Positions 45,457 to 57,855 of a stretch of 64,000 nucleotides of DNA are shown here, one piece after another. Made by a program: the position numbers and the translations under genes. The notes under the pieces were generated by a model. It worked only from the letters and a program-made list of their open reading frames with translations, searched no databases and was not told where the DNA came from. Source of the stretch: an uncultured Agromyces sp. (GTDB taxonomy: Bacteria; Actinomycetota; Actinomycetes; Actinomycetales; Microbacteriaceae); the NCBI GenBank assembly GCA_913053875.1, contig CAJXGN010000009.1:1-64000 (forward strand), read 5' to 3'. Each line of letters opens with the position of its first letter. The stretch's first letter is position 1.

Positions 45457-46107
45457 TCAGGGCCCCGGCCACATCGGCGAGTCGAGCTCCCGGTCGAGGT
45501 CGGCCAGCAGTTCGGCGACCTGTGGCTCGACGACGCCGGCGATCCCCTCCGCGATGCGCGCGCGGTGGTCGCGCAGCGCGGCGCAGATGCGGCGCCCGAT
45601 CTGCTTCGCGAACTCGTCGGCCAGCCGGACCTCCTCGCGGATGGCGGCCTTCTCCTCGGCCGAGAGGGGGCGCGGATGCTCCGCCTCGGCGCCCTCCGCC
45701 GCGTCGCGCTCGAGCCCGCCGATCGTGAACAGGAACGGCTGGTCGGGTGACGGGTCGGGGTCGAGCTCGAGCCCGCGGTACTCGGGGTCGAGCCCATCGC
45801 CCGGACGGTAGGGCCGACGCGCCTTGCGCTCCTCGGCCTGCCGCAGCTCGCGGTGCAGCAGCGGGAGGTTGCGGTCGGTGTAGTCGTCGACCGCGACGTC
45901 GATGATGCCCTTCATGCGCATCGACAGGGCGTGCTGCACGCCGTGCGGCACGTCGACCTCGAGGCCGGCCGCGGCGAGGATCGGCGAGCCGAAGCAGCGT
46001 CGGCAGAGCCGCACCCGGGCACGTGCGGTGCCGGGGCGCCACCGCGGGAGCCAGCGGAGCCAGTTGTCGACCTCGTGGCTGACCCGAGCCTCGATCGACC
46101 CGTCCAT
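45457..46107 (-). CDS. Conserved hypothetical protein with a CxxC motif
   Basis: A 216-residue protein I do not recognise. The N-terminal 60 residues contain WLRWLPRWRPGTARARVRLCRRCFGSP, with a Cys-x2-Cys pair; the middle is charged (LHRELRQAEERKARRPYRPG), a proline/aspartate-rich linker follows, and the C-terminal 90 residues look helical. No signal peptide or membrane helix is seen. It lies between the str promoter and the secretion locus. A TAGCGT hexamer eight bases before the ATG suggests an almost leaderless mRNA. Confidence 0.75.
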   Translation of the reverse strand: MDGSIEARVSHEVDNWLRWLPRWRPGTARARVRLCRRCFGSPILAAAGLEVDVPHGVQHALSMRMKGIIDVAVDDYTDRNLPLLHRELRQAEERKARRPYRPGDGLDPEYRGLELDPDPSPDQPFLFTIGGLERDAAEGAEAEHPRPLSAEEKAAIREEVRLADEFAKQIGRRICAALRDHRARIAEGIAGVVEPQVAELLADLDRELDSPMWPGP

Positions 46108-46166: not shown

Positions 46167-46643
46167 TCACGTGCGCTCCTCCCAGGGCCAGCGCGGCGGC
46201 CCGGCGCTGCGGCCGCGCCGCCGGACGAGGGCGATGTCGGCCCACGTGACCGCCGCCGCGAAGAGCCCCACGATCGACGTGAACGGGCTCAGCACGAGGG
46301 TGACGGCGAAGTCGAGCGAGTCGACCGCGCCGCCGTAGGCGACCACCCCGGTCAGGACGTACCCGGCCCACGCGGCCACGCCCGTCCAGATGCCGAACCA
46401 GGTGGAGGCGGCCTGGTCGCGGAACAGGCGACCCGGCACCGCGAACAGCAGCATGGCCAGCAGCACCAGCACCGAGACCCCGACCATCGCGGGCCCGAGC
46501 AGCAGGCTCGCGTCGGGCAGCGTGATCGGGTCGCCGCCGAACAGCAGGGCGAGGAAGCCGAACGCGCAGACCAGGGCCGCGAGGTACGTCGCGGTCGCGA
46601 ACGGGGCGAGCGCCCGGGCGTAGTTCCGCTGGTCGGCGTCCAT
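46167..46643 (-). CDS. Four-helix membrane protein of unknown function
   Basis: A 158-residue protein with about four membrane helices (around residues 15-35, 45-68, 82-103 and 112-138) and a basic Arg/Pro C-terminus (RRRGRSAGPPRWPWEERT). No family motif is seen. A TAGGCT hexamer lies six bases before the ATG (46655-46650) and no Shine-Dalgarno, so it is probably leaderless. It is separated from the WXG100 gene upstream by a strong terminator, so it is its own unit. Confidence 0.75.
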   Translation of the reverse strand: MDADQRNYARALAPFATATYLAALVCAFGFLALLFGGDPITLPDASLLLGPAMVGVSVLVLLAMLLFAVPGRLFRDQAASTWFGIWTGVAAWAGYVLTGVVAYGGAVDSLDFAVTLVLSPFTSIVGLFAAAVTWADIALVRRRGRSAGPPRWPWEERT

Positions 46644-46726: not shown

Positions 46727-47014
46727 TCAGCCGCCCGCGAGCTGCTGGTCGAGGTCCTGGATCGCGTGCATCATCGCGCGCAGCGACTCGCCCATCTCGC
46801 CGATGCCGTCCACGGCCGACTTGAGGCCCGTCGTCAGCTCCTCGTAGCCCTGCCCGAACCGGCCGGACGCGTGCTGGGTGCGGAAGTCCTCGCCCAGCAG
46901 GTTGTCCACCGACGCCTTCAGCTGGTCGAGCTGCGCCTGGATGTCGTCCCGCGCGTCGCCGAGCTTCGCCGCCATGGCCTCCATCTCGCCGTACGACGCT
47001 CCGAAGTCCGCCAT
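46727..47014 (-). CDS. WXG100-family (ESAT-6-like) small helical protein
   Basis: A 95-residue protein, the WXG100 length. ATG 47014 (MADFGASYGEM) is chosen because AAGGTGG is five bases upstream. Two amphipathic helices are separated near residues 40-52 by NLLGEDFRTQHA, where the classical Trp-x-Gly turn is replaced by a Gly-x-x-Phe turn. It ends with QDLDQQLAGG. Such proteins are secreted as helical hairpin dimers by type VII systems. It has its own weak promoter-like TAGCGT (47074-47069) and ends at a terminator, so it may be made in excess over the rest. Confidence 0.78.
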   Translation of the reverse strand: MADFGASYGEMEAMAAKLGDARDDIQAQLDQLKASVDNLLGEDFRTQHASGRFGQGYEELTTGLKSAVDGIGEMGESLRAMMHAIQDLDQQLAGG

Positions 47015-47132
47015 GAGTTCCACCTTCCCGATCGTCTCCACCGGTCCCTCGCGGACCGAACGACACCTACGCTAACCCGGCCCGCACCGTCGGGCGATGG
47101 GCAGCGCTCCCCACCCGTGGACGGACGCCGGC

Positions 47133-48083
47133 TCACGCCGGGCCCGGTGCTCCCGACGGCAGGAACGGCGCGTCAGCCGCGTCGAGGAGCAGGGCGCCGA
47201 CGGGATCCGCCGCGATCGCGCGCACCCGTCGCGGGGGAAGCAGGCCGCGCCGCGACAGTCGATCGAGCGCGGCCGCGCGTGCCGCCTCCATCGCCGCTCG
47301 TTCATCGTCCGACAGCACCGCGAGCGCCCCGTCGACTCCGTCGACCGCGCGCAGCCGCGCGTCGGCGACGTCGGCGAGGAACGGGTCGGCGATCTCCCGG
47401 TCGTCGGCCGTGTCGGCCACCAGCGCTGCGCGCATCCGCACCCGACGCACCGAATCCACGATCGCGAGCACCAGCATCGGGAGGACCGACGCCACGATGA
47501 CCGGCAGCCAGCCGTCGGCCGAGCCCGCGTTCAGCGGGTCGTCCGCGACCCGATGGAGCGCGAGGCCGGCGGTCACCACACCCACCGCGCCGGTGCCGAT
47601 CGCGACCCGCGGCAGGGGCTGCAGCAGCCGTGGCGCGGCCAGCGCGGCGACGAGCAGCACGAGCGCGGCGACGCCGGAGACCGCCGCGAGCACGCCGCCG
47701 ACCGTGAGGGCGTCGGCCAGCCCGATCGCGCCGCGCGCGACGAGGAGCGCGAAGGCTGCCGTGACCGGCAGCAGGAGCGCTCCGGTGAGCAGCAGCGAGG
47801 CGCACCCGGCACGGGGATGGTCGGACCCGGCACGTGCCGCGATGCGCCGGATCGCGGCGGCGCCGCCATGCGCGCGGTCGGCCGCCGCCACCTCCTCGCC
47901 GTATGCGCGGGCCTCGCGCTCGACGGCGGCCAGCACGTCCGGCGCGGAGGCGAGCAGCCGACGGTCGAGGTCGGCGAGCTCGGCGGGGCCGGCGACGCGC
48001 AGGGAACGGGCCCAGTCGGCGGCGGCATGGGCCCGGGGCATCCGCTCGCCATCGACCGGCTCGGGAGCCGCCGGTTCAGCCAT
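47133..48083 (-). CDS. Multi-helix membrane protein of the secretion-like locus
   Basis: A 316-residue protein with a soluble N-terminal part (1-90, helical), about four membrane helices (around 93-115, 122-148, 155-175 and 187-210) and a soluble C-terminal helical part. It has no match I recognise; it is not clearly EccD, EccB or EsaA. Its start overlaps the preceding gene by eight bases, so it is cotranslated. As the second membrane protein of the locus it is a possible stand-in for a channel component; that is inference only. Confidence 0.75.
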   Translation of the reverse strand: MAEPAAPEPVDGERMPRAHAAADWARSLRVAGPAELADLDRRLLASAPDVLAAVEREARAYGEEVAAADRAHGGAAAIRRIAARAGSDHPRAGCASLLLTGALLLPVTAAFALLVARGAIGLADALTVGGVLAAVSGVAALVLLVAALAAPRLLQPLPRVAIGTGAVGVVTAGLALHRVADDPLNAGSADGWLPVIVASVLPMLVLAIVDSVRRVRMRAALVADTADDREIADPFLADVADARLRAVDGVDGALAVLSDDERAAMEAARAAALDRLSRRGLLPPRRVRAIAADPVGALLLDAADAPFLPSGAPGPA

Positions 48084-48657
48084 GGGACGGCAGGATGCGC
48101 AGGGTCTGCACGATCTGCTCGAGCTGCTCCTCGAGCAGGCCGAGCACGGTCGGCCGCGTGGGCGAGGTCAGCACGTGCACCGCGAACCCGTCGGCCGCGA
48201 ACGCGTAGCTGATGCCGCCGACCGGGTGCCCCGCCGCATCCGGTGCCGCCGCGACGAAGGTCGACCGGCGCCCGGCACCGAGGCCCGCCGCGGTCACGTC
48301 CTCGACAACGGGCGGGATCGCGAGCGGCAGGTCGGGCGTGAGCGCGTGGCGCAGCCCCGCCTCGACGTCGTCGCCCTCGGCGATCGCGGCGACGCGCACG
48401 TGCACGACCGCGGTGACCGGCACCGAGTACGGGCGGAAGAGCAGGGTGAGCGCGTCGTCGGGGGCGACCTGCGCGCGCACCTCGTCGAGCATCACGCGGA
48501 GCGCCATGCGCTGCTCGTCGCCGAACCCGTCGCGCCCGACGGCGTAGCCGGCCTCGAGCTCGGACGTGAACGCGTCCCACCGCTCGGCCGGCGCCTCGCG
48601 CGGCACGACGCTCCACGAGGCATCCGGCACCTGCAGGTCGAGCTCCATCGCGTTCAC
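48076..48657 (-). CDS. Small conserved protein of the secretion-like locus, possible PsbP/Mog1-like fold (second copy)
   Basis: A 193-residue soluble protein without signal peptide. GTG 48657 overlaps the previous stop (GTGA); ATG 48648 is an alternative. It ends in LEEQLEQIVQTLRILP. Alternating hydrophobic strands in the middle (LTLLFRPYSVPVTAVVHVRV) and a final helix resemble the DUF1795/PsbP/Mog1 fold, and the neighbouring gene looks similar. The assignment is weak. Coupled translation suggests both act together. Confidence 0.65.
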   Translation of the reverse strand: MNAMELDLQVPDASWSVVPREAPAERWDAFTSELEAGYAVGRDGFGDEQRMALRVMLDEVRAQVAPDDALTLLFRPYSVPVTAVVHVRVAAIAEGDDVEAGLRHALTPDLPLAIPPVVEDVTAAGLGAGRRSTFVAAAPDAAGHPVGGISYAFAADGFAVHVLTSPTRPTVLGLLEEQLEQIVQTLRILPSHG

Positions 48658-49277
48658 CGTGCGTCCTCCGTCCGGGGCATCCAGGCGAAGGTGCCCATGA
48701 TCGCGTCGGCGGTGTAGATGAAGCCGGCGAGCGGATGCTCCGAGGGGGCCGTGCCCACGGGGTGCGCGATGACCGCGGCGAAGCGCAGGGCGCTGCGACG
48801 ACGCGTCCCGGGGATGGGCGTGAGGTACGACACCGTGTGCGAGCCGATGCGGTCGCCGTTCACCTCGTGCGTGCCCGAGCGCTCCCAGCGGATCATGGCG
48901 CGGTCCTCGTTCAGGGCGCGTGCGCCGTGGCTGCGGATGAGCTCGGACACCTGCGCGTCGAGCGTGCCGCCGTCGGGCGCGGTCATGCGCGTCGCGGTGA
49001 TCGACATGGGCATGATCGCATCGTCGGGCGCGGAGTCCTGCACGAAGTACGCGACCGCGTCGAGGCGGCGGAGGTCGGCGAACGCCTGGCGGGCCAGGGT
49101 GCGCAGCTGGGCGTTCAGGTCGGGCCGGTGCTGGCGACGCAGGCGATCGGATGCCCGTGCGAGCATCGCCTGCTCCCCCGCCTGATCGGGTGCGTGCTCG
49201 ACCCACCCCGGCGGGAGGATGAGCTGGAACGGGGGGACCTCGGGGCGGGTGCCGAGGAGCTCGTCTCTCAGTGACAT
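48654..49277 (-). CDS. Small conserved protein of the secretion-like locus, possible PsbP/Mog1-like fold (first copy)
   Basis: A 207-residue soluble protein. The N-terminal FQLILPPGW is typical of PsbP/Mog1-like proteins, and the C-terminus YTADAIMGTFAWMP fits the last strand and helix of that fold. No catalytic motif is visible. The overlap with the next gene (GTGA) couples them. Similar small proteins occur next to secretion ATPases in actinobacteria and may be chaperones or assembly factors, which here is inference. Confidence 0.65.
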   Translation of the reverse strand: MSLRDELLGTRPEVPPFQLILPPGWVEHAPDQAGEQAMLARASDRLRRQHRPDLNAQLRTLARQAFADLRRLDAVAYFVQDSAPDDAIMPMSITATRMTAPDGGTLDAQVSELIRSHGARALNEDRAMIRWERSGTHEVNGDRIGSHTVSYLTPIPGTRRRSALRFAAVIAHPVGTAPSEHPLAGFIYTADAIMGTFAWMPRTEDAR

Positions 49278-49335
49278 CCGTCACATCCTCGCGCGTCCGC
49301 GGGGCGCACGCGAACCGACGGCCTCGCCGTGCAGG

Positions 49336-50556
49336 TCACGAGGTCGCGGCCAGCTGCTCGCGCCAGGTGTCGACCGGCGGCTCCGGCGGCGTCTCGGCGC
49401 CGAACACGCCCACGACGTTCGAGATCGTGGTCTTGATGTTGACGTCCATGTGGCCCGCCACGAGGTGCGCCGCGTTGACCCCGTTGTCGGTGGCCGCCTG
49501 GAGGGCGACGTTGTCGGCGACGCCCATGTACCGCGCGAAGATGTCGGCTCCGCCGCCGATCTCGCCGGAGATCTCGGTGAACAGCGAGCGCCCGGCGCCG
49601 GCCAGCCCGGGCACCCCGCTTCCGGCCGCAGTGAAGCCGGTCCGCACGGCGGTCCAGCCGCTGCGGACCTGGCCGATCGCGGGGCCGAACTCGTCGGCCG
49701 CGACGAACCCCTTCAGTAACGCCTTCGTGCCCGCCTCGCCGCCCTCGGCGAATGCGCCGAGCTTGCCGATGGGGATCACGCCGACGATCGCCCACGCGAC
49801 GTCGCTCCACGACGCGCGCCCGTAGAACTTCATGTACACCGTCAGCGCAAGCGCGAGGATCCCGGCGATGGTGCCGAGCACCGCGATGAGCGGCCCGCCG
49901 ATGACGATCGCGAGCACCGCGAGCACGATGCCGACCACCTGGAGCACCTTGAGCGCGGTGTCGGCGAATCCTGCGAGGTCGTCGGTCCACGAGTCCTCGA
50001 TGCCGCCGTCGGTCGCCGTGCCGATCGCGTCGGTCGCGCGCTCGAACGCCTCCTCCCACGTGTCGTAGCGCGCGTCGTAGTCGTCGGCGAGCAGCTCCCA
50101 GGCGTCGTGCGCCTGCTCGCGCGCGATCCGAGCGTTCTCCCGGGTCGTGTCGTCGGCCACGCCGGTGTCGGGGTCGGGCATGGGCAGCGGCATGGTCGCG
50201 TACTCCATGTGCCGCGACGTGTAGGTGATCCACGCCTGCTCGCAGTCGTCGAGGAGCGTGCGGAGACCGGTCTGGACCTCCTCGAGCGAACCCGCGTAGG
50301 CCTTCAGCGCCAGCCCCGTGGGCGAGTAGCGCTCGCCCGCGAGCCGCAGCTCCTCGTGCACGTCGCCGACGACCTCGCGGAGCGCGTCGACGCTCAGGCC
50401 CTCCATGCCCTCCGCGCCCTCGGCGATCGCCTTGAGCAGCCCGGCCGACTCGCGCATCTGCATGCCGAGGTCGACGATCTCGTCGCCGCGGCGCGTGATG
50501 TCGCCGGGGTGGCCCTCGATCCACTCGATCTCGCGGCCCAGGCGGGTGGGATCCAT
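49336..50556 (-). CDS. Candidate type VII secretion substrate with WXG-like N-terminus
   Basis: A 406-residue protein. Residues 1-130 are helical and resemble the WXG/LXG-type N-terminal modules of secreted proteins; 130-200 is charged; 205-250 is strongly hydrophobic (VVGIVLAVLAIVIGG, then ALALTVYMKFYG). The rest is Gly/Ala-rich and ends HMDVNIKTTISNVVGVFGAE with a Pro-rich tail. No toxin or enzyme domain can be named. The arrangement (helical head, hydrophobic hairpin, tail) is that of many polymorphic secreted proteins. It lies between two small helical genes and could be substrate or membrane component. Confidence 0.65.
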   Translation of the reverse strand: MDPTRLGREIEWIEGHPGDITRRGDEIVDLGMQMRESAGLLKAIAEGAEGMEGLSVDALREVVGDVHEELRLAGERYSPTGLALKAYAGSLEEVQTGLRTLLDDCEQAWITYTSRHMEYATMPLPMPDPDTGVADDTTRENARIAREQAHDAWELLADDYDARYDTWEEAFERATDAIGTATDGGIEDSWTDDLAGFADTALKVLQVVGIVLAVLAIVIGGPLIAVLGTIAGILALALTVYMKFYGRASWSDVAWAIVGVIPIGKLGAFAEGGEAGTKALLKGFVAADEFGPAIGQVRSGWTAVRTGFTAAGSGVPGLAGAGRSLFTEISGEIGGGADIFARYMGVADNVALQAATDNGVNAAHLVAGHMDVNIKTTISNVVGVFGAETPPEPPVDTWREQLAATS

Positions 50557-50593
50557 GCGTGTCGCTCCTCGTCGTGAGTCGGAAGGTGGTCGC

Positions 50594-50920
50594 TCAGCCG
50601 CGCGGCAGATCGCGGGTCTCGCCGGCGTCGACGCTCAGGGACTTCGACGCCTCGACGTCCCAGTCCTCCCACGCGGCGCCGGTCTCCTCGACGTGCTGCT
50701 GCACCTTGGCGATGTCCTCGCGGAGGAACCGCCTGCGGTCGTCCCAGCCCGACTCGAAGCTGCTCGCCTTCGAGCGCAGCTCGCCGCGCCCGCACGGCGT
50801 GCCGATCGCCTCCTCGAGCTGGTCCGACCGGTTCGAGGCCTCGTCGAGCTCGACCAGGATCTGCTTGAGCGAGCCGTTGAGCTCGTTCAGCACCGAGTAG
50901 CTGATCAGCACGTCCGACAT
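50594..50920 (-). CDS. WXG100-like small helical protein
   Basis: A 108-residue protein predicted to form a helical hairpin: helix 1 around LNELNGSLKQILVELDEASN, a turn near GTPCGRGEL, then FESGWDDRRRFLREDIAKVQQHV with a Trp and helix 2. It resembles ESAT-6-like partner proteins, though the Trp is late. It lies just downstream of the EssC-type ATPase, and ends before the candidate substrate gene, as expected for a pair or adaptor. Confidence 0.65.
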   Translation of the reverse strand: MSDVLISYSVLNELNGSLKQILVELDEASNRSDQLEEAIGTPCGRGELRSKASSFESGWDDRRRFLREDIAKVQQHVEETGAAWEDWDVEASKSLSVDAGETRDLPRG

Positions 50921-51026
50921 GTTGCGCCTCCTCGGGTCTCCGCCGGTTCGCTGCCGGCGATGGCGAGCCTATTGCCGGCCCGGGCGTCGGGAACATGGGG
51001 ACCGATCCCCATCGGCGGCATCCGTG

Positions 51027-54000
51027 TCATGACAGCGGCAGCTGCACCGTCTGGATGCGGCCGTTCTGCACGAAGATGCCACGACCCTCGGGGAAGTCCG
51101 CGCGCTTGACCTTGGGGAACGGCACCTTGAACACCGAGTCGCCGTCGTACGCGTCGGGCCGCAGCGCCACGCCGCGCCGCCCGGCCTTGAAGTCGCCGAT
51201 GAAGCCGAACCCGCTCGACAGCAGCGACACGTCGGCGTCGCCCACGAGGAAGTGGTCGCTGCGGTTGACGGCCTGGAAGAGCTCCTTGAGCGGGCGCTCG
51301 GCCTCCGTGTCGGCGAACTGGGTGACCTGCTCGACCACCACCATGATGCGGTGACCGATCGACTCGTCGGGGATGAGCTCGACGAGCTCCTTCGCCAGGG
51401 CCTTCGCGTCGGCCACGTTCGTGGCGCTGCGGGTCCACGGCGCGTGGTCGCCGAGCTGTGCGCGACGACCGGCGAAGTGGAAGAGGCGCACGTCGGGGTC
51501 GAACCGCCGCATCGCGTCGACGAGGCCGCGCAGCGCCTGCGACTTGCCGCTCTGGGGCGGGCCCGTCACCGCGAACGTGCCGACCGGCTCGAAGCCGATC
51601 GGGCCGAGCGTCTCGTCGGCGAGGCCGAGCACGGGCTCGCCGGCGACCTGCTCGGGCAGGTGCTCCGCGGGGAACGCGACGGGCAGTGCGCCGATGCCCG
51701 GCGCCTCGGGTGCGCCCTCCCGGCGGAGCCGCGCCGCGAGCGCCTCGAGCGCCGTGGTCTGCATCGCGACGTTCGTCGAGCCGCCGAGCACCGCGACCTG
51801 CGCCTCGGCGCCGTCGACGATCGCGCGCCCCGGTGCGGAGCGCTCGTCGAGCACGTCCTTCGGCACGCCCAGCACCTGGTAGGCGGTCTCCTCGGAGAGG
51901 CGCAGCACGATGCGCTTGGTGATGTTCGCCGCGACCGCGGTGGGCACCGCGCCGGCACGGTCGGCCGTGGCGACCACGTGCACGCCGAGCGGCCGGCCCT
52001 CACCGAGGATGCGCATGAACGCGTTGTAGAACGGCGCGCGGACCGCGGCGCCGTCCCACTCCGCACGGAACTGCGCGAACCCGTCGACGAGCACGAACAC
52101 GCGCGGCTCGCTGCGTCCGGTCAGCTCGCGGTACTCGGTCAGGCTCGCCGCGTTGACCGCGCTGAACTCGCGGCCGCGACGGTCGAGCAGGTCGCCGACG
52201 GTGCGCAGCAGCCGCTGGATCCGCTCGGGGTCGTCGCCCGGGACGACCGCGCCGACGTGCGGCAGCGCCTCGAGCGACCGCAGCGAACCCGAGCCGAAGT
52301 CGAGGCCGTACACCTGCGCCACGCCGGCATCGGGGCGCATGCCGGCCGCGATGGCGACCGTGCGCAGCGCGGTCGACTTGCCAGCGCCGCTCGTGCCGTA
52401 GACGAGCATCGACCCGTCGCGGTCGGGCACGAAGTGCACCGGCTCCTGCAGCTGCCGCTCCGGACGGTCGGCGAGTCCGACGACCACCTGCGCGTCACCC
52501 GCGACCGGCAGGTCGACGAGGTCGACCGCCGGGGCGAGGTCGTCGAGCCAGGGCCGGCGCGGCGTGGGGATCGACGCCAGGGTCGCCGCCTCCACGAAGC
52601 TGCGCACCATGCGCTTCTGGTCGTTCGGACCGGGATCCGCACCGAGGTCGGCGGCCTCCGGCTCGGCGTCGGCCTCCCAGAGCACCACGCCGCCGAACCG
52701 CAGCTCGGCGACGCGCACCTCGGCCTCGGTCTGCTCGTCGGCGCTCCAGCCGCCCGCGTACGCCGCCTGGAACGACACCAGTCGGCCCGGCCCCGTCTTC
52801 GCGATCGCGCGCCCGGGCAGCGACGGGTCGAAGCCCGCCGCGACGGCGTCGCCGACCACGTCGCGGGAGTCGGACTCGTCGGCCATGCGCAACGCGACCC
52901 GCAGGTTCGTGTTCGCACGCAGGTTGTCCTTGATGACGCCGGCCGGCCGCTGCGTCGCCATGATCAGGTGGATGCCGAGCGAGCGCCCGCGCTGTGCGAT
53001 GTCGACGACGCCGTCGACGAACTCGGGCACCTCGTTCGCGAGCGCCGCGAACTCGTCGATCACGAGCACGAGCGCCGGCGGGCACTCGGGGTCGCGCCGC
53101 CGCTCGAGCTCGAGCAGGTCCTTCGCCTTCTTGCGGTTGAACAGGCGCTCGCGGTGGTGCAGCTCGGCCCGCAGGCTCGTGAGCGCGCGCCGCACGAGGT
53201 GCGGGCTCAGGTCGGTCACGAGGCCCACGCAGTGCGGCAGGTCGACGCAGTCGGCGAACGCCGACCCGCCCTTGTAGTCGACGAACAGGAACGTCACGCG
53301 GTCGGGGCTGTATTCGGCCGCCATGCCGAGCACCCACGCCTGGAGGAACTCCGACTTGCCCGAGCCCGTCGTGCCGCCGACCAGCGCATGCGGGCCCTGG
53401 CTGCGCAGGTCGAGGGTCATCGCGTCGGGGCTCGACTGGCCCACGAACGCCTTGAGCGTGCCGGCGCGCTTCAGGCGGGGCAGGGGCGCACCGGACCGGT
53501 CGGCGACCGAGTCGTTCTGCCGCCAGCGCTCCACCACGCTCGACGCCTGGTCGGCGAGGTCGTGGCCGATGAGCCCGAGCATCGACGCCGAACGCGGCAG
53601 GTCGCTCGAGTCGGCCACCACGGTGCTCGCGTCGACGACGGGCGCGAGGCGCTTCGCGAACACGTCCGCGTAGGCGGCCGAGACGCCCTCGACGCGCACC
53701 TGCTCGTAGGTGCGGCCGGCGCGGACGAGTCCGACCGTGGCATCCTCGAGCCCCCGGGACGCATCGATGTACGACCGGCACGCGGCGGGCAGCGACTCGA
53801 CGCTCGACCCCAGGAAGATCGTGTAGATGCCCGCGTCGGCACCCCGCTCGATGACCTGGGTGAGGCGCGGCCGGTCCACCGGGGCATCCGCCGACACGAA
53901 CAGCACGAGCGCCATGTCGCCCTCGACCTCGCCGCCCTGCTCGATCGCCTCGCCGATCTGCGCCCCGAGCTCCATCGCGGTGTCGGCGTCGCGGAGCGGG

Positions 54001-55502
54001 CCGCGGCGCGTGGCCGTGCCCGACAGGCGCTGCAGGATCGTCTCCTCGAGCGCGTTCAGCAGTGCGGTGCCCGTGGCCTGGCTGTCGGCCAGCGCGAACT
54101 GCGCGAACGGCGAGCGCGGACTCGTGGTGTGCGGCATCCACTTCAGCCACTCCAGCTCGCGCGCCCAGCCGGGATCGACGATCGCGGCCGTGATGATCTC
54201 GTTCGGCGCGTGCAGGCCGAACAGCTGCACGCCGAGGCCGCGCACGACGTCGGCGGCGACGCCGCGGGGGCCGGCCACGCCCAGCGCACCGGCGCTCGGC
54301 AGCAGCTCCACGACGGGGACGTCGTCGATGCTGGCGAAGCGCTCCCGCAGGTCCTCCACCCGAGCGGCGTACTCCGGGATGCCGCCCCCGCCGGGCGACG
54401 GGGCGATCGAGTTGCGGCTCGCCGCACGACCCGTGCCGAGCCGGAACGACAGGAAGTTCCAGTGCTCGGGGCGCCGGGTCCAGAGCATCGGGCCGAGGCG
54501 CATGGCCTGCTCGTAGACCGTCGCGACCGCGGGCGCCTCGCCCTGCCGGCGGTCGAACTCGACCTCGACCTCCGCGGTCAGGCGCTCCTCGAGCGCCTCG
54601 GCCTGGAGCTCGAACGTCTCGATCTCCTGGCGGACCTTCCGGCTCGTGAAGCTCCGCTGGCCGAACCAGTTCGCGAGCAGCATGAGCGGTGCCATCGCGA
54701 CGATGACCAGCGAGAGCACGCGCTGGGTCAGCGCGTAGATCGAGAGCCCCATGATCACAGGCGCGACGATCATCGGCCACGGGAACATGCGCGGCGTCGC
54801 CTCGGTGGGCAGGTCGGGGTGCGGGTACTCGGTGCCCGGATAGCGCGGCTCCACGCGCGGCGACCGGTTGAACATCAGGGCGCCGCCCCGTTCGAGCACC
54901 GGGTCGTGCTCCACCTCGGCCGATGCGACGGGCGTGATCGCCACCTCGGTGTCGCCCAGTACGACGGCCTGGCCGGGGATCACGGTGAGGCGGGGCACGA
55001 GCCCGCCGTCGACGAGGATGCCGTTGGCCGAGTTCAGGTCGACGAGCTCGATGCCGTGGCCGACGTCGATGCGCGCGTGGCGCTTCGACACGAGCGGGTC
55101 GGCGAGCACGACGTCGGCGTCGCCGCCGCGACCGATGACGCTGTGCCCCTCGGGCAGGTCGATGCGACGGCCCGCCTCGGGGCCACTGCGCACCTCGAGC
55201 ACCGCGGCGGGGCCCGTGCGCCGCCCGCCCTGGCGCGCGCCCGCATCGGGCACGACCGCCGCGCGGAAGCCCGACCCGATCGCCGCGTCGGCGAACAGCG
55301 CACTCGACGCGAGCGTGGTGGCCTCGCGGGCGGTCGGGGCCGCGACGGCGAGGGTCAGCGGCACGCCCGCCGTGCCGGTGCCGCGCGGGTCGCTGCCGGC
55401 GATCGCACGCGCGACGTCGCCCACCGTCGCGGTCGCATCGGAGGTGACCACGATGTCGACATCGTCGCCGCCGGGGCGCCGGTAGGAGAGCTTGACCTTC
55501 AT
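51027..55502 (-). CDS. FHA-containing EssC/EccC-type secretion ATPase
   Basis: A 1491-residue FtsK/SpoIIIE-family motor of a type VII-like secretion system. Residues 1-90 are a beta-rich head; an FHA domain follows at about 100-190 (GRGGDADVVL, SKRH, NSANG). Two membrane helices lie at 242-281. Three ATPase domains follow: D1 with Walker A GGTTGSGKS (709-717) and Walker B LVLVIDEF (811-818); D2 with GTSGAGKST (1036-1044) but VLVDGF instead of DE; D3 with GPPQSGKSQ (1314-1322) and VVVEQ. Only D1 looks fully active. ATG 55502 overlaps the RDD-FHA stop as ATGA; a frame extension beyond it overlaps that gene and is rejected. Confidence 0.9.
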   Translation of the reverse strand: MKVKLSYRRPGGDDVDIVVTSDATATVGDVARAIAGSDPRGTGTAGVPLTLAVAAPTAREATTLASSALFADAAIGSGFRAAVVPDAGARQGGRRTGPAAVLEVRSGPEAGRRIDLPEGHSVIGRGGDADVVLADPLVSKRHARIDVGHGIELVDLNSANGILVDGGLVPRLTVIPGQAVVLGDTEVAITPVASAEVEHDPVLERGGALMFNRSPRVEPRYPGTEYPHPDLPTEATPRMFPWPMIVAPVIMGLSIYALTQRVLSLVIVAMAPLMLLANWFGQRSFTSRKVRQEIETFELQAEALEERLTAEVEVEFDRRQGEAPAVATVYEQAMRLGPMLWTRRPEHWNFLSFRLGTGRAASRNSIAPSPGGGGIPEYAARVEDLRERFASIDDVPVVELLPSAGALGVAGPRGVAADVVRGLGVQLFGLHAPNEIITAAIVDPGWARELEWLKWMPHTTSPRSPFAQFALADSQATGTALLNALEETILQRLSGTATRRGPLRDADTAMELGAQIGEAIEQGGEVEGDMALVLFVSADAPVDRPRLTQVIERGADAGIYTIFLGSSVESLPAACRSYIDASRGLEDATVGLVRAGRTYEQVRVEGVSAAYADVFAKRLAPVVDASTVVADSSDLPRSASMLGLIGHDLADQASSVVERWRQNDSVADRSGAPLPRLKRAGTLKAFVGQSSPDAMTLDLRSQGPHALVGGTTGSGKSEFLQAWVLGMAAEYSPDRVTFLFVDYKGGSAFADCVDLPHCVGLVTDLSPHLVRRALTSLRAELHHRERLFNRKKAKDLLELERRRDPECPPALVLVIDEFAALANEVPEFVDGVVDIAQRGRSLGIHLIMATQRPAGVIKDNLRANTNLRVALRMADESDSRDVVGDAVAAGFDPSLPGRAIAKTGPGRLVSFQAAYAGGWSADEQTEAEVRVAELRFGGVVLWEADAEPEAADLGADPGPNDQKRMVRSFVEAATLASIPTPRRPWLDDLAPAVDLVDLPVAGDAQVVVGLADRPERQLQEPVHFVPDRDGSMLVYGTSGAGKSTALRTVAIAAGMRPDAGVAQVYGLDFGSGSLRSLEALPHVGAVVPGDDPERIQRLLRTVGDLLDRRGREFSAVNAASLTEYRELTGRSEPRVFVLVDGFAQFRAEWDGAAVRAPFYNAFMRILGEGRPLGVHVVATADRAGAVPTAVAANITKRIVLRLSEETAYQVLGVPKDVLDERSAPGRAIVDGAEAQVAVLGGSTNVAMQTTALEALAARLRREGAPEAPGIGALPVAFPAEHLPEQVAGEPVLGLADETLGPIGFEPVGTFAVTGPPQSGKSQALRGLVDAMRRFDPDVRLFHFAGRRAQLGDHAPWTRSATNVADAKALAKELVELIPDESIGHRIMVVVEQVTQFADTEAERPLKELFQAVNRSDHFLVGDADVSLLSSGFGFIGDFKAGRRGVALRPDAYDGDSVFKVPFPKVKRADFPEGRGIFVQNGRIQTVQLPLS

Positions 55503-56653
55503 GCGCCGACCTCCGCGCGCTCGACCGTGAACGACCTGCCGCCGACCTCGACCCGGGCGCCCCAGGCGAGCGACGTGCGCTCCCCGGCGGTCAGCGTCAC
55601 GGGCTCGCCGTCCGGCCCGCGCACCTCGGTGCCGTTGGTCGAGCCGCGGTCGGCGATCCAGAACCCCGACTCGTCGACGCCGAACGCGGCGTGCGTCTTC
55701 GAAATCTCCATGCGCGGGTCGTCGAGCGGCAGCAGCTGCCCCACCCGTTCGCCGGCCCTCGGCTCGGGCGCCCTGCCGAGCAGTCCGTCGCCGGTCACGT
55801 CGATGCGGCTGCCGTCGTCGAGCACGAGCACCGCGCCGATGCGGCCGTCTCCCGCCGGCCGGCCGTCTCCCGCAGGCGCGCCACCGAGCGCGGGCGGCAC
55901 CCACGCCTCGTCGGCGGCGGGCGCGGCGACCACACCCGAGGCGGACCTCGCCGCGGGGATGAACGCGGCCGAGCCCGGGGCATCCGTCGCCAGTGACGGC
56001 AGCGACTCGCGTCGGGTCGACGGCGCCGGGACGAGCGCGCGCCGCGCCTGCCGCACGGCCTTCGCGTCGGCGAGGTCGAGCGCGTGCCGCGCGTCGACCA
56101 GCCAGACCGAGCCGAGCCGGTCGAGCCAGCTCCGCCCGCGACGGGCCGGGTCCCAGAGGCCCGACGCGAACAGCAGCGCCGGCCCCAGCAGCGGCAGCAA
56201 CGACCACGACAGCCAGAGCACCGTGGCGCGCCAGGTGATGCGCCAGAAGCCCGGGCGGCCGAAGGTGACCACGCTCACGCTGCGCAGCCCCGCGCTCGCC
56301 TTGCCCGCGGTCACGCCGCGCCGCCCGTGCAGGATGAGCTGCACCAGCCCGAACACCGCGAGCAGCACCTGGCTGACGAGCACGAGCACGAACGGCAGCA
56401 CCAGGTCGGACGGGGCGGCAGCGGATGCCTCGCCCAGCGCGACCGGCAGCAGCACGCGCAACAGCAGCACCGCCCCGACGACTCCCGGGGCGGCGAGCAC
56501 CGACCAGATCGTCGCGTCGAGCGCGAACGCGAGCACGCGACGGCCGGTGGGCGCCGACCGCACGCCGAGCACGTCGGCGTCGTGGAGGTCCGCGATGCCG
56601 CCGGCGCTCGTGCCGGGCTCGCGGACGACTGCGGCCTGTGGGGTGACGCTCAC
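55499..56653 (-). CDS. RDD-family membrane protein with C-terminal FHA domain
   Basis: A 384-residue protein from GTG 56653, which has AGGAAGGA six bases upstream; ATG 56716 would add 21 residues with a poor ribosome site. An RDD domain lies near the N-terminus (GRRVLAFALDATI, then RRGVTAGKASAGLRSV), with four membrane helices. A 100-residue polar linker leads to an FHA domain (about 285-384: LLGRAPEPR, ISKTHAAF, STNGTEV) that binds phosphothreonine. It is coupled to the ATPase by ATGA, and both carry FHA domains, pointing to control by a Ser/Thr kinase encoded elsewhere. Confidence 0.88.
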   Translation of the reverse strand: MSVTPQAAVVREPGTSAGGIADLHDADVLGVRSAPTGRRVLAFALDATIWSVLAAPGVVGAVLLLRVLLPVALGEASAAAPSDLVLPFVLVLVSQVLLAVFGLVQLILHGRRGVTAGKASAGLRSVSVVTFGRPGFWRITWRATVLWLSWSLLPLLGPALLFASGLWDPARRGRSWLDRLGSVWLVDARHALDLADAKAVRQARRALVPAPSTRRESLPSLATDAPGSAAFIPAARSASGVVAAPAADEAWVPPALGGAPAGDGRPAGDGRIGAVLVLDDGSRIDVTGDGLLGRAPEPRAGERVGQLLPLDDPRMEISKTHAAFGVDESGFWIADRGSTNGTEVRGPDGEPVTLTAGERTSLAWGARVEVGGRSFTVERAEVGA

Positions 56654-56774
56654 GCCGGTTCCTTCCTCGTCGGCGCGGTCGCGCACCTCGATCGGGCGGC
56701 GCGCACGCACCTGCATCCGAGGAGAACACCTCGCGGGCTCGCCGTCGATGGGGAGCGGTCACCACCGGACTCCC

Positions 56775-56874: not shown

Positions 56875-57855
56875 TCAGGGACGCGTGAGCTGCGGCCCCG
56901 CCGCGAGCTGGCGGTCGTACTCCTCGTACGCCGCCCGGTTGCGCGCGGTGACGGTGCGGCCGCGCGCGGCCACCCACGCACCGAACCAGAGCGTCACCTC
57001 GCGCGCGAAGACGCCCGCGAGAATGGCGCGCGGGTCGAGCCAGCGCGCCGCGACGAAGTCGCCCACCTCGGCAGAGGTGAGGTTCCAGGCCTCGCCGAGC
57101 AGCGCGCCGCCGACGTACGAGAAGTACACGACGATGCCGACCAGCAGGCCGAAGACCGCGTACGCCCACCAGCCGTTCCGGTTGACGATCGCCGCGAGCA
57201 GGATGAACGAGAGGAAGAAGACGAGCACGGGCACCCAGAACGCCGGGTGGCCGAGGAACTGCAGGAACGCGTCGATCGGCGCCGCCGTCGAGCCCTGCAC
57301 GAAGACCAGCAGGTAGCCGGCGAGCGCGTACAGCGCGGCGAACGCGACCGTCGCGATGAGGCCGACGAGCACGCCGAAGCCGCGGTTGCCCCGCGGACGC
57401 GGCGGAGTGGGCGCCTGCACGTAGATCGCCCGCTGCTCGGGCTCGGCCGGCGGCGCCGGGGCTGCCGGAGCCACGGGTGCGGGGGGCTCGGTCGTGGGCG
57501 CCTCGTCGGCGGCCGGGACCTGCTCGGTCGAGGTCTCCGGCTCGACGGGCGCGGGTTCGGGCGCGGGTTCGGGCTCGTCGGCGGTGGCGCCGTCGGAGAC
57601 CGGCTCGTCCGCGGTGGCGGCATCGGGCGCCGGGTGCTCGGCCTGCGCCCGCTGCACGGCTGCGTCGAGCTCCGACGTGTCGGACTCCTGCGCGGTGTCG
57701 GCGGGCGGAGCCGGGGGCGCGGGCTGCTCCGACGTCGGTGCGGCGTCGGCTGGCGGGGCATCCGCACCCGTCGTCGTGTCGGTCTCACCGGTGTCGGCCT
57801 GCGGCGTGCTCGTGGGCTCGTCCTCGGGTCGAGATCCGGGCGTCGTGTCGCTCAT
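56875..57855 (-). CDS. Membrane protein with long acidic proline-rich N-terminus
   Basis: A 326-residue protein of unknown function. Residues 1-160 are low complexity (Pro, Ala, Glu, Thr, Asp; for example EPEPAPEPAPVEPETS) and must be cytosolic or disordered. Membrane helices follow at about 165-187, 205-228, 232-255 and possibly one more, then a basic C-terminus (RGRTVTARNRAAYEEYDRQ). ATG 57855 is preceded by GGAAGGGG and, further up, a TAGAGT -10-like hexamer (57902-57897). Terminator-like hairpins on both sides suggest a single-gene unit, so membership of the secretion locus is uncertain. Confidence 0.8.
   Translation of the reverse strand: MSDTTPGSRPEDEPTSTPQADTGETDTTTGADAPPADAAPTSEQPAPPAPPADTAQESDTSELDAAVQRAQAEHPAPDAATADEPVSDGATADEPEPAPEPAPVEPETSTEQVPAADEAPTTEPPAPVAPAAPAPPAEPEQRAIYVQAPTPPRPRGNRGFGVLVGLIATVAFAALYALAGYLLVFVQGSTAAPIDAFLQFLGHPAFWVPVLVFFLSFILLAAIVNRNGWWAYAVFGLLVGIVVYFSYVGGALLGEAWNLTSAEVGDFVAARWLDPRAILAGVFAREVTLWFGAWVAARGRTVTARNRAAYEEYDRQLAAGPQLTRP

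What the first reader, a model, noticed from the sequence alone, without database searches (positions are those of the whole stretch)
46727..56653. Compact type VII secretion-like locus without the known channel genes
Seven or eight minus-strand genes encode an FHA-bearing EssC/EccC-type ATPase, an RDD-FHA membrane protein, two small WXG100-like helical proteins, a 406-residue candidate substrate with a hydrophobic hairpin, two soluble small proteins and a multi-helix membrane protein. Overlaps (ATGA, GTGA, 8 bases) make most of them one unit. I see no EccB, EccD, EccE, EsaA, EssB or mycosin. Either the 316-residue membrane protein and the RDD protein form the membrane part, or the rest is elsewhere. 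It sits between rpoC and rpsL, where accessory genes are unexpected.
Basis: partly seen in the sequence, partly recalled or inferred. Interest (0 to 1): 0.7.

Follow-up and report, generated by a model that had tools for sequence, protein, structure and literature searches.

The report
Split type VII secretion locus, effector cassette
This is half of a little-studied bacterial protein-export machine, sitting with a probable toxin, its chaperones and its antidote between two housekeeping genes; the other half seems to lie elsewhere in the same genome, and the ubiquitin-like part that such machines usually carry separately seems to be fused to the motor.

Summary
The locus is real. It is a type VII secretion (T7SS) locus of the T7SSd-like sort (Garrett 2024), not ESX and not T7SSb: no EccB, EccD, YukD or EssB match in this assembly.

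The missing kinase, phosphatase and large Ig-repeat protein are in a "PFNA"-type cluster on contig C5. In the nearest relative (G082) the orthologous genes lie directly upstream of the same ATPase.

Three things look new. (1) The ATPase starts with a probable ubiquitin-like (YukD-like) domain ahead of its FHA domain, which would replace the separate TsxB protein. (2) The 406-aa protein is probably a polymorphic effector: conserved half with a hydrophobic hairpin, variable end. It travels with WXG1 and with P207/P193, which have the Mog1/PsbP fold of T6SS Eag chaperones that wrap effector membrane helices; the 316-aa protein is probably the immunity protein. (3) PFNA-type genes, described in bifidobacteria as immune-sensing, are genomically tied to a T7SS ATPase.

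The ATPase does not group with Bifidobacterium T7SSd, so I file it as a sister variant. Secretion, chaperone and immunity roles are inferred, not shown.

The parts
55499..56716 (-). RDD membrane domain + C-terminal FHA domain protein (405 aa)
   Evidence: Pfam RDD 1.2e-11 and FHA 5.6e-6; 44.8% identical to the gene upstream of the ATPase in G082
51027..55502 (-). TsxC/EccC-EssC type ATPase, 1491 aa: ubiquitin-like residues ~1-91, FHA ~96-194, two hydrophobic segments ~240-280, FtsK/SpoIIIE-type ATPase domains after
   Evidence: TIGR03928 EssC 507 bits (cut-off 778), EccCa 323, EccCb 322 bits; FHA model Z 17; N-terminal profile hits ubiquitin-fold PDB chains; hydropathy
50594..50920 (-). WXG1, 108-aa WXG-like partner (Lap-like) of the effector
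   Evidence: no Pfam match over cut-off; a WXG1-type gene within two genes upstream of 42 of 44 effectors
49336..50556 (-). candidate effector, 406 aa: conserved ~1-280 with hydrophobic hairpin ~194-240, variable C-terminus ~281-406
   Evidence: 14 of 27 family members match PF21725 T7SS_signal at E<=0.1, best 2.2e-11; the window protein itself does not; conservation profile; hairpin in 43 of 44
48654..49277 (-). P207, Mog1/PsbP-fold protein, candidate chaperone of the hairpin
   Evidence: AlphaFold pLDDT 91.7; Foldseek MTC28, LpqN, Mog1; VIA Z 9.3 to SciW bound to an effector membrane domain
48076..48657 (-). P193, distant paralogue of P207, candidate second chaperone subunit
   Evidence: hhalign P207 vs P193 families: probability 85.6%, E 5.6e-6, 186 columns
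47133..48083 (-). M316, polytopic membrane protein, candidate immunity protein
   Evidence: four hydrophobic segments; a polytopic gene within four genes downstream of 33 of 44 effectors; lower identity than the effector's N-terminal half in 13 of 15 pairs
46727..47014 (-). WXG2, 95-aa WXG100 protein (TsxA-like core component)
   Evidence: PF06013 2e-10 over cut-off; 63-97% identical in 10 compared pairs; its profile hits the Bifidobacterium TsdA-position gene at 1.7e-27
56875..57855 (-). P326, conserved neighbour next to rpoC (site marker, not part of the system)
   Evidence: relatives in 12 other stretches

Best explanation
The window holds the motor and effector half of a T7SSd-like type VII secretion system. 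SHOWN BY SEQUENCE: the ATPase family and its FHA domain, the WXG100 core protein, the recurring cassette WXG1-effector-P207-P193-membrane protein, the orthologous PFNA-type cluster on contig C5. INFERRED: (1) the ATPase is the membrane motor; its N-terminal ubiquitin-like domain does the job of the separate TsxB/YukD protein. (2) The C5 kinase phosphorylates threonines on partner proteins, which the FHA domains of the ATPase and of the RDD protein read, so secretion is switched by kinase and PP2C phosphatase; the 1772-aa Ig/fn3 protein reaches into the envelope. (3) The 406-aa protein is a membrane-acting or membrane-crossing antibacterial effector: WXG1 pairs with its helical N-terminus as export signal, P207 and P193 clasp its hydrophobic hairpin in the cytosol before export, as Eag chaperones do in T6SS, and the 316-aa membrane protein protects the producer.
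For: ATPase. Ub-like N-terminus: AlphaFold order E2-8 E14-20 H27-37 E49-54 E80-85; the five best PDB profile hits are two designed ubiquitins and three SAMP1 (E 2e-4 to 8e-3); Pfam YukD in 6 of 34 members, best 2.8e-4; no hit at the N-terminus in 7 of 7 T7SSa EccC; no YukD match in the genome. PFNA link: 25 of 64 stretches of this ATPase clade carry at least 3 PFNA-type genes, 0 of 7 T7SSa stretches; one unbroken run in G119; C5 orthology; the second PFNA cluster (C1) has its own 938-aa FtsK-type ATPase beside it, so the C5 cluster and the window ATPase are left as partners. Cassette in named Bifidobacterium next to TsdA-D-H-I-C-like genes. P207 fold. Hairpin and P207 together in 41 of 44; the one hairpin-less effector has no P207. 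Polymorphism: L040/L046 ATPase 85%, WXG2 97%, effector N-half 63%, C-part 24%, M 33%.
Against: No secretion, toxicity or binding was tested. Only one effector lacks the hairpin, so the hairpin-P207 association is barely tested. P207 matches immunity proteins (Tsi3 Z 9.2, TplEi 9.1) and LpqN (9.8) as well as SciW (9.3), all within 1 Z, and Foldseek TM-scores are low (0.35-0.41). The effector C-terminus has no recognised toxin domain. In 5 of 15 pairs its C-part is not clearly more divergent than the N-half. 11 of 44 effectors have no polytopic gene within four downstream by my rule, and 39 of 75 non-T7SSa ATPase stretches have no full effector gene. 39 of 64 clade stretches, all 7 other distant ones and all 6 Bifidobacterium entries do not reach 3 PFNA genes. 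The window's own N-terminus hits no ubiquitin family, and residues 1-91 were never fold-searched alone (one search covers the FHA part).
Confidence: 0.6

Rival explanations
1. P207 and P193 are immunity proteins against the effector, not chaperones; M316 is an export or anchoring component.
For: The same fold occurs in T6SS immunity proteins: Tsi3 Z 9.2, TplEi 9.1, Tli4 8.2.
Against: P207 and P193 have no hydrophobic segment, so they look cytosolic. Where effector C-termini differ most P207 is better conserved than M (L040/L046 52% vs 33%; B. mellis/choladohabitans 99% vs 48%). In Bifidobacterium P207 precedes the effector and a polytopic gene follows it, in L183 as a tandem pair.
Confidence: 0.25
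2. The 406-aa protein is not a toxin but a conserved secreted or membrane component of the apparatus, with M316 and the RDD protein as its membrane partners.
For: No toxin domain found; the hairpin half is conserved in relatives.
Against: Some loci have ATPase, WXG2 and RDD-FHA without it (L045) or RDD-FHA and ATPase alone (L163); eight of 36 stretches hold two effector genes; the C-terminus varies.
Confidence: 0.2
3. The ATPase is a housekeeping FtsK-like or signalling platform tied to cell-wall growth through the PFNA kinase arm, and does not secrete.
For: PFNA-type genes (kinase, PP2C, transglutaminase, MoxR-type AAA) suggest envelope physiology; a 938-aa FtsK-type ATPase sits beside another PFNA cluster in this genome; 11 of 64 clade stretches have no WXG gene by my labels, e.g. 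L163, L173.
Against: A WXG-type gene in 53 of 64 clade stretches; T7SS_signal proteins beside the ATPase; patchy presence within the genus (3 of the 5 other genomes drawn), unlike a housekeeping gene.
Confidence: 0.12

Closest known systems
T7SSd (Garrett, Higginson & Palmer 2024, PMC11217815; parts 1-5 of 7 read, the main text)
   Same: FHA-bearing ATPase, core WXG100 protein, kinase and large Ig-repeat protein linked to the ATPase in relatives, no separate ubiquitin-like gene, Actinomycetota; same kind of effector cassette (WXG-like gene, P207, effector, polytopic gene) in Bifidobacterium asteroides-group genomes
   Different: kinase/Ig part is on another contig; Ig protein has no detectable similarity to the Bifidobacterium one and no C-terminal hydrophobic segment; no TsdH seen; extra PP2C, MoxR-type AAA, DUF58, transglutaminase, RDD; ATPase falls in a separate clade
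PFNA operon of bifidobacteria (PMC8430577; abstract start and term passages seen)
   Same: kinase, fn3/Ig protein, AAA ATPase, DUF58, transglutaminase, PP2C, FHA
   Different: described as host-signal recognition; the paper has no occurrence of 'secretion system', 'type VII', 'FtsK' or 'WXG'; here such a cluster is linked to a T7SS ATPase in relatives
T7SSb (EssC/EsxA/LXG toxins with Laps)
   Same: EssC is the best-scoring NCBIfam model for the ATPase (below cut-off); effector with small helical partner
   Different: no EssB and no separate YukD
T7SSa (ESX)
   Same: EccC-type ATPase, WXG100
   Different: no EccB or EccD in the genome; seven EccC from genomes with EccB nearby form a separate group without a hit to the window's FHA or ubiquitin-like N-terminus
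Eag (DUF1795) chaperones of T6SS (PMC7773334; abstract and term passages seen)
   Same: Mog1/PsbP fold, gene next to an effector with membrane helices and a putative immunity gene
   Different: different secretion machine; no DUF1795 match among the Pfam hits; prePAAR/PAAR were not looked for beyond Pfam

Membership tests
T7SSd | TsdC ATPase with FHA domain and conserved phosphothreonine-type residues | tested here: met
   FHA 7e-12; R125, S139, H142, N160 in at least 90% and G124, G161 invariant in 35 sequences; that these are phosphothreonine-binding positions is recalled. The window FHA as query does not hit the Bifidobacterium N-termini
T7SSd | core WXG100 protein TsdA | tested here: met
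   WXG2 PF06013 2e-10; profile hits the Bifidobacterium TsdA-position gene 1.7e-27
T7SSd | no separate ubiquitin-like TsxB | tested here: met
   PF08817 0 matches in the genome at E<=1
T7SSd | membrane kinase TsdD encoded at the locus | tested here: not met
   absent from the window locus; the two best of seven kinase matches are in the C1 and C5 clusters, each with one hydrophobic segment; adjacent to the ATPase in relatives such as G119
T7SSd | TsdI: signal peptide, Ig-like repeats, C-terminal TM | tested here: not met
   not at the locus; C5 1772-aa protein has 8 Big_9 stretches and fn3, an N-terminal hydrophobic segment but no C-terminal one, and no similarity to the Bifidobacterium TsdI-like protein
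T7SSd | TsdH single-TM protein | tested here: inconclusive
   none recognised at the window locus or C5, but a short gene could be missed
T7SSd | ATPase clusters with TsdC | tested here: inconclusive
   separate clade from Bifidobacterium ATPases; deep supports 0.28-0.5; no Olsenella sequence in hand
T7SSa | EccB and EccD | tested here: not met
   no match in the genome; 12 of 120 family genomes do have EccB
T7SSb | EssB and separate YukD | tested here: not met
   EsaA and EssA not searched
Eag chaperone (DUF1795) | Mog1/PsbP fold | tested here: met
   Foldseek probability 0.99-1.00 to MTC28, LpqN, Mog1, TM-score 0.35-0.39; VIA Z 9.3, rmsd 4.4, 119 aligned to SciW
Eag chaperone (DUF1795) | DUF1795 sequence family | tested here: not met
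   not among the 9 Pfam families matched at E<=1 by the 25 members of the P207 alignment
Eag chaperone (DUF1795) | binds effector transmembrane helices | not testable with these tools
   needs co-structure or co-purification
PFNA cluster | kinase, fn3, AAA ATPase, DUF58, transglutaminase together | tested here: met
   for the contig C5 cluster by Pfam, for C1 by similarity to it and G119; not for the window itself

The most novel reading that the evidence does not exclude
A whole branch of actinobacterial T7SSs, so far hardly described, exports effectors with membrane-helix hairpins by using Mog1/PsbP-fold chaperones convergent with the Eag chaperones of T6SS; its ubiquitin-like subunit is fused to the ATPase, which would explain why T7SSd seems to lack one; and the PFNA operon is its phosphorylation and envelope arm rather than a stand-alone immune sensor.
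Probability: 0.4. Interest if true: 0.8.

Novelty: new variant of a known kind. Interest (0 to 1): 0.62.

Why it matters
It ties together three subjects that the texts searched treat apart: T7SSd, the PFNA operon and Eag-type chaperones (term checks). It makes a stated puzzle, the missing ubiquitin-like protein of T7SSd, testable by one structure. It offers a T7SS answer to the problem of exporting a protein that would otherwise insert into the producer's own membrane. The ATPase type is common: some relative at E <= 1e-60 in 131 of 198 genomes of the order, more distant types included.

Tried and rejected
Rejected: ESX/T7SSa (no EccB or EccD), T7SSb (no EssB, no separate YukD), and the idea that the site is abnormal. 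The 316-aa protein as EccE/EccB-like: no family match. Profile searches of P207, P193 and effector families against PDB sequences gave nothing useful: de novo, centriole and coiled-coil chains. NCBIfam on the effectors gave mainly coiled-coil hits, WXG100 in 2 of 27 at 0.02. EspG and EsaE were not among the rows shown; this does not exclude a relation. Rfam: no match; promoter/terminator scan: one weak promoter-like site at 45417-45389, outside the operon, no terminator-like site. A lone WXG100 gene on contig C7 has no secretion genes around it that I recognised. Rows dropped or chosen: effector-like proteins under 300 aa (e.g. L038, L060, L061, L170) are not in the 44; searches counted 46 because two Bifidobacterium genomes were held twice (L176=L181, L177=L182), mended; two membrane proteins were left out of the P193 alignment; ATPases under 1,450 aa and L043 were left out of the first N-terminal alignment by the script and L065 by me; the 34 rows of the second N-terminal alignment were chosen by hand. 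Papers: no paper holds both 'PFNA' and 'type VII secretion'; 'T7SSd' occurs in one paper; 'type VII secretion' with 'Microbacteriaceae' in two (listing only); of 100 papers with at least 3 of six Eag/chaperone/T7SS terms, 15 were listed and none joins Eag to T7SS by title or abstract start, full texts not read for this; of 40 papers with at least 2 of type VII/LpqN/Mog1/PsbP/DUF1795, 12 were listed. Zhang 2012 (PMC3482391, passages) speaks of Mog1/PsbP-like proteins as T6SS adaptors; [quoted passage not shown] the passages shown do not mention fusion to the ATPase. bioRxiv and most subscription papers are not covered.


Full report
OBSERVATION. A codon-usage gene caller trained on window genes, five of them from this locus, returns the same genes with other start choices for two, and the translations match. 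Pfam and NCBIfam recognise RDD-FHA, the FHA/FtsK-type ATPase and one WXG100 protein; the 108-aa protein, the 406-aa protein, P207, P193 and the 316-aa protein have no match over a curated cut-off. The ATPase scores 507 bits against EssC (cut-off 778), 323 against EccCa and 322 against EccCb, all below cut-off.

DISTRIBUTION. In 120 genomes of the same family, 42 have an ATPase at least 40% identical over at least 500 residues (my count from the table). Of the five other genomes of the genus drawn, three have it at 67-69% and two have only distant ATPases. In the order, 131 of 198 genomes have some relative at E <= 1e-60; in the phylum, 36 of 246. Neighbourhoods of 64 stretches from this ATPase clade were mapped: 15 contain rpoC or rpsL, a lower bound because stretches are about 20 kb or less. 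So the site is a habit of these genomes, not an oddity. The gene caller is home-made and hydrophobic segments were called by a simple hydropathy window; loci are related, so counts are not independent events.

MODULES. Some loci keep only ATPase + WXG2 + RDD-FHA (L045) or RDD-FHA + ATPase (L163). Others add the cassette WXG1 - effector - P207/P193 - membrane protein; eight of 36 stretches hold two effector genes. Others add a PFNA-type set: kinase, PP2C, FHA proteins, Ig/fn3 protein, MoxR-type AAA, DUF58, transglutaminase. At least 3 of these occur in 25 of 64 clade stretches, in 0 of 7 T7SSa stretches, in 0 of 7 stretches with other distant ATPases and in 0 of 6 Bifidobacterium entries. In G119 all of it lies in one run from rpoC to rpsL: P326-like gene (33% identity), 2014-aa fn3/Ig protein, MoxR-type AAA, DUF58, transglutaminase, RDD, PP2C, FHA, kinase, FHA, ATPase, WXG2, WXG1, effector, P193-like, P207, membrane protein (Pfam).

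WHERE THE REST IS. The window's genome has two PFNA clusters. The genes on C5 are the closer orthologues of those directly upstream of the ATPase in G082, its sister in the tree (support 0.96): MoxR-type AAA 73.6% against 56.3% for C1, DUF58 58.9% against 36.4%, transglutaminase 48.6% against 33.8%. The C1 cluster is followed at once by its own 938-aa FtsK-type ATPase. So the C5 cluster has no ATPase beside it and the window ATPase has no PFNA cluster; the simplest reading is one system that was split. Two same-genus genomes (L161, L162) also show no PFNA genes between rpoC and the ATPase. No EccB, EccD, YukD or EssB match exists in the assembly (99.98% complete).

A FUSED UBIQUITIN-LIKE DOMAIN. 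Residues 1-91 of the ATPase, before the FHA domain, are modelled with high confidence in an order of strands and helix typical of a beta-grasp. A profile of 34 such N-termini finds, as its five best PDB hits, two designed ubiquitins and three SAMP1 chains (E 2e-4 to 8e-3; that SAMP1 has the ubiquitin fold is recalled). Pfam's YukD model hits 6 of 34 members, best 2.8e-4, below its cut-off; the window sequence alone hits nothing. Seven of seven EccC from genomes with EccB within about 20 kb show no hit at the N-terminus. Garrett 2024 reports that T7SSd surprisingly lacks the ubiquitin-like protein. Here the likely reason is fusion. For Bifidobacterium T7SSd itself this is not shown: 3 of 3 N-termini give no ubiquitin-family match and only weak partial profile hits (E 0.05-0.11), and the window FHA does not hit them either. 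The fold search with this model covered only the FHA part.

THE EFFECTOR. Relatives of the 406-aa protein keep about 280 N-terminal residues including the hairpin, and vary after that. 14 of 27 match PF21725 T7SS_signal at E <= 0.1. In 44 distinct cases, 43 have a hydrophobic pair at 130-300, 42 have WXG1 within two genes upstream, 41 have P207 close by, 35 have P207 next to a second soluble partner and 33 have a polytopic gene within four downstream. The one without a hairpin (L051, 566 aa) has no P207 of its own, while its neighbour with a hairpin has one. Against this, two hairpin effectors have no P207 close by: a second copy in L041, next to genes that I read as a transposase, and L070, where P207 lies on the other strand beyond the ATPase. 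The effector end and the membrane protein tend to change fastest: in L040/L046 ATPase 85%, WXG2 97%, effector N-half 63%, C-part 24%, membrane protein 33%; in B. mellis/choladohabitans ATPase 99%, N-half 99%, C-part 75%, membrane protein 48%. The C-part is at least 10 points lower than the N-half in 10 of 15 pairs and the membrane protein lower than the N-half in 13 of 15; some pairs may compare non-orthologous cassettes.

THE CHAPERONES. P207 was modelled at pLDDT 91.7. Foldseek gives MTC28, a Jonesia protein, LpqN and Mog1 at probability 0.99-1.00 with low TM-scores of 0.35-0.41; VIA-align gives 3lyd Z 10.9, LpqN 9.8, PsbP 9.5, SciW with the Rhs1 membrane domain 9.3, Tsi3 9.2, EagT6 8.8. The fold is therefore Mog1/PsbP-like; the fold alone cannot separate chaperone from immunity protein. 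P193 is a distant paralogue. In Bifidobacterium only P207 was recognised, before the effector; the P207 profile finds it at 9e-11 to 2.5e-4 among 1338 proteins. Eag chaperones are domain-swapped dimers that grip effector membrane helices in a claw (PMC7773334, passages), and the eag-effector-immunity gene grouping there resembles the grouping here.

ANCHOR TO KNOWN SYSTEMS. A genome scan with the distant ATPase of L176 returned four Bifidobacterium records (B. mellis, B. choladohabitans, B. asteroides, B. sp. 7101). In the three printed gene by gene (L181, L183, L184) the order is WXG100 - kinase with one hydrophobic segment - 140-aa protein with one - 1781/1782-aa protein with N- and C-terminal ones - ATPase - FHA (not called in L184) - WXG-like gene - P207 - effector - polytopic gene; Pfam on L181 confirms kinase, Ig-like and FHA domains. 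This fits the published T7SSd components A, D, H, I, C. The cassette seen in the window thus also occurs with T7SSd. But the window ATPase lies in a different clade, with weak deep support (0.28-0.5), the Ig proteins are not detectably similar and the kinase is not at the locus. I therefore file it as a T7SSd-like sister variant, not as T7SSd.

MECHANISM, with what is inferred. The kinase on C5 phosphorylates a partner; FHA domains of the ATPase and RDD protein bind it; PP2C reverses it; the motor with its built-in ubiquitin-like domain exports WXG2 and the WXG1-effector pair; P207/P193 keep the hairpin soluble until hand-over; M316 protects the producer. All of these steps are inference from family knowledge and gene order.

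Noticed in passing
G000 contig C1 193.3-209 kb (L076, L188): A second PFNA cluster is followed directly by a 938-aa FtsK-type ATPase; many family genomes show a hit to a similar ~900-1,050-aa ATPase. It may be a second, separate T7SS-like system.
   Followed up: partly
L066 (G079, same genus): Near rpoC and the P326 gene this genome has a different, 33%-identical ATPase with several WXG-like genes and a 1993-aa protein, instead of the window type.
   Followed up: partly
window 56875-57855 and 46167-46643: P326 (no family over cut-off) and a DUF6121 membrane protein recur as neighbours of this site in relatives.
   Followed up: no
G000 contig C7:72222-72473 (L082): A lone WXG100 gene beside what look like two-component regulator genes, with no secretion genes recognised near it.
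   Followed up: partly
L183:17566-19115: In B. asteroides the effector is followed by a tandem pair of similar polytopic genes, as immunity arrays would be.
   Followed up: partly
window 45457-46107: A 216-aa gene between rpsL and the DUF6121 gene without relatives in the sampled stretches.
   Followed up: no
L043 (G055): The ATPase is inverted relative to the effector cassette and its neighbours, with the cassette order kept.
   Followed up: no
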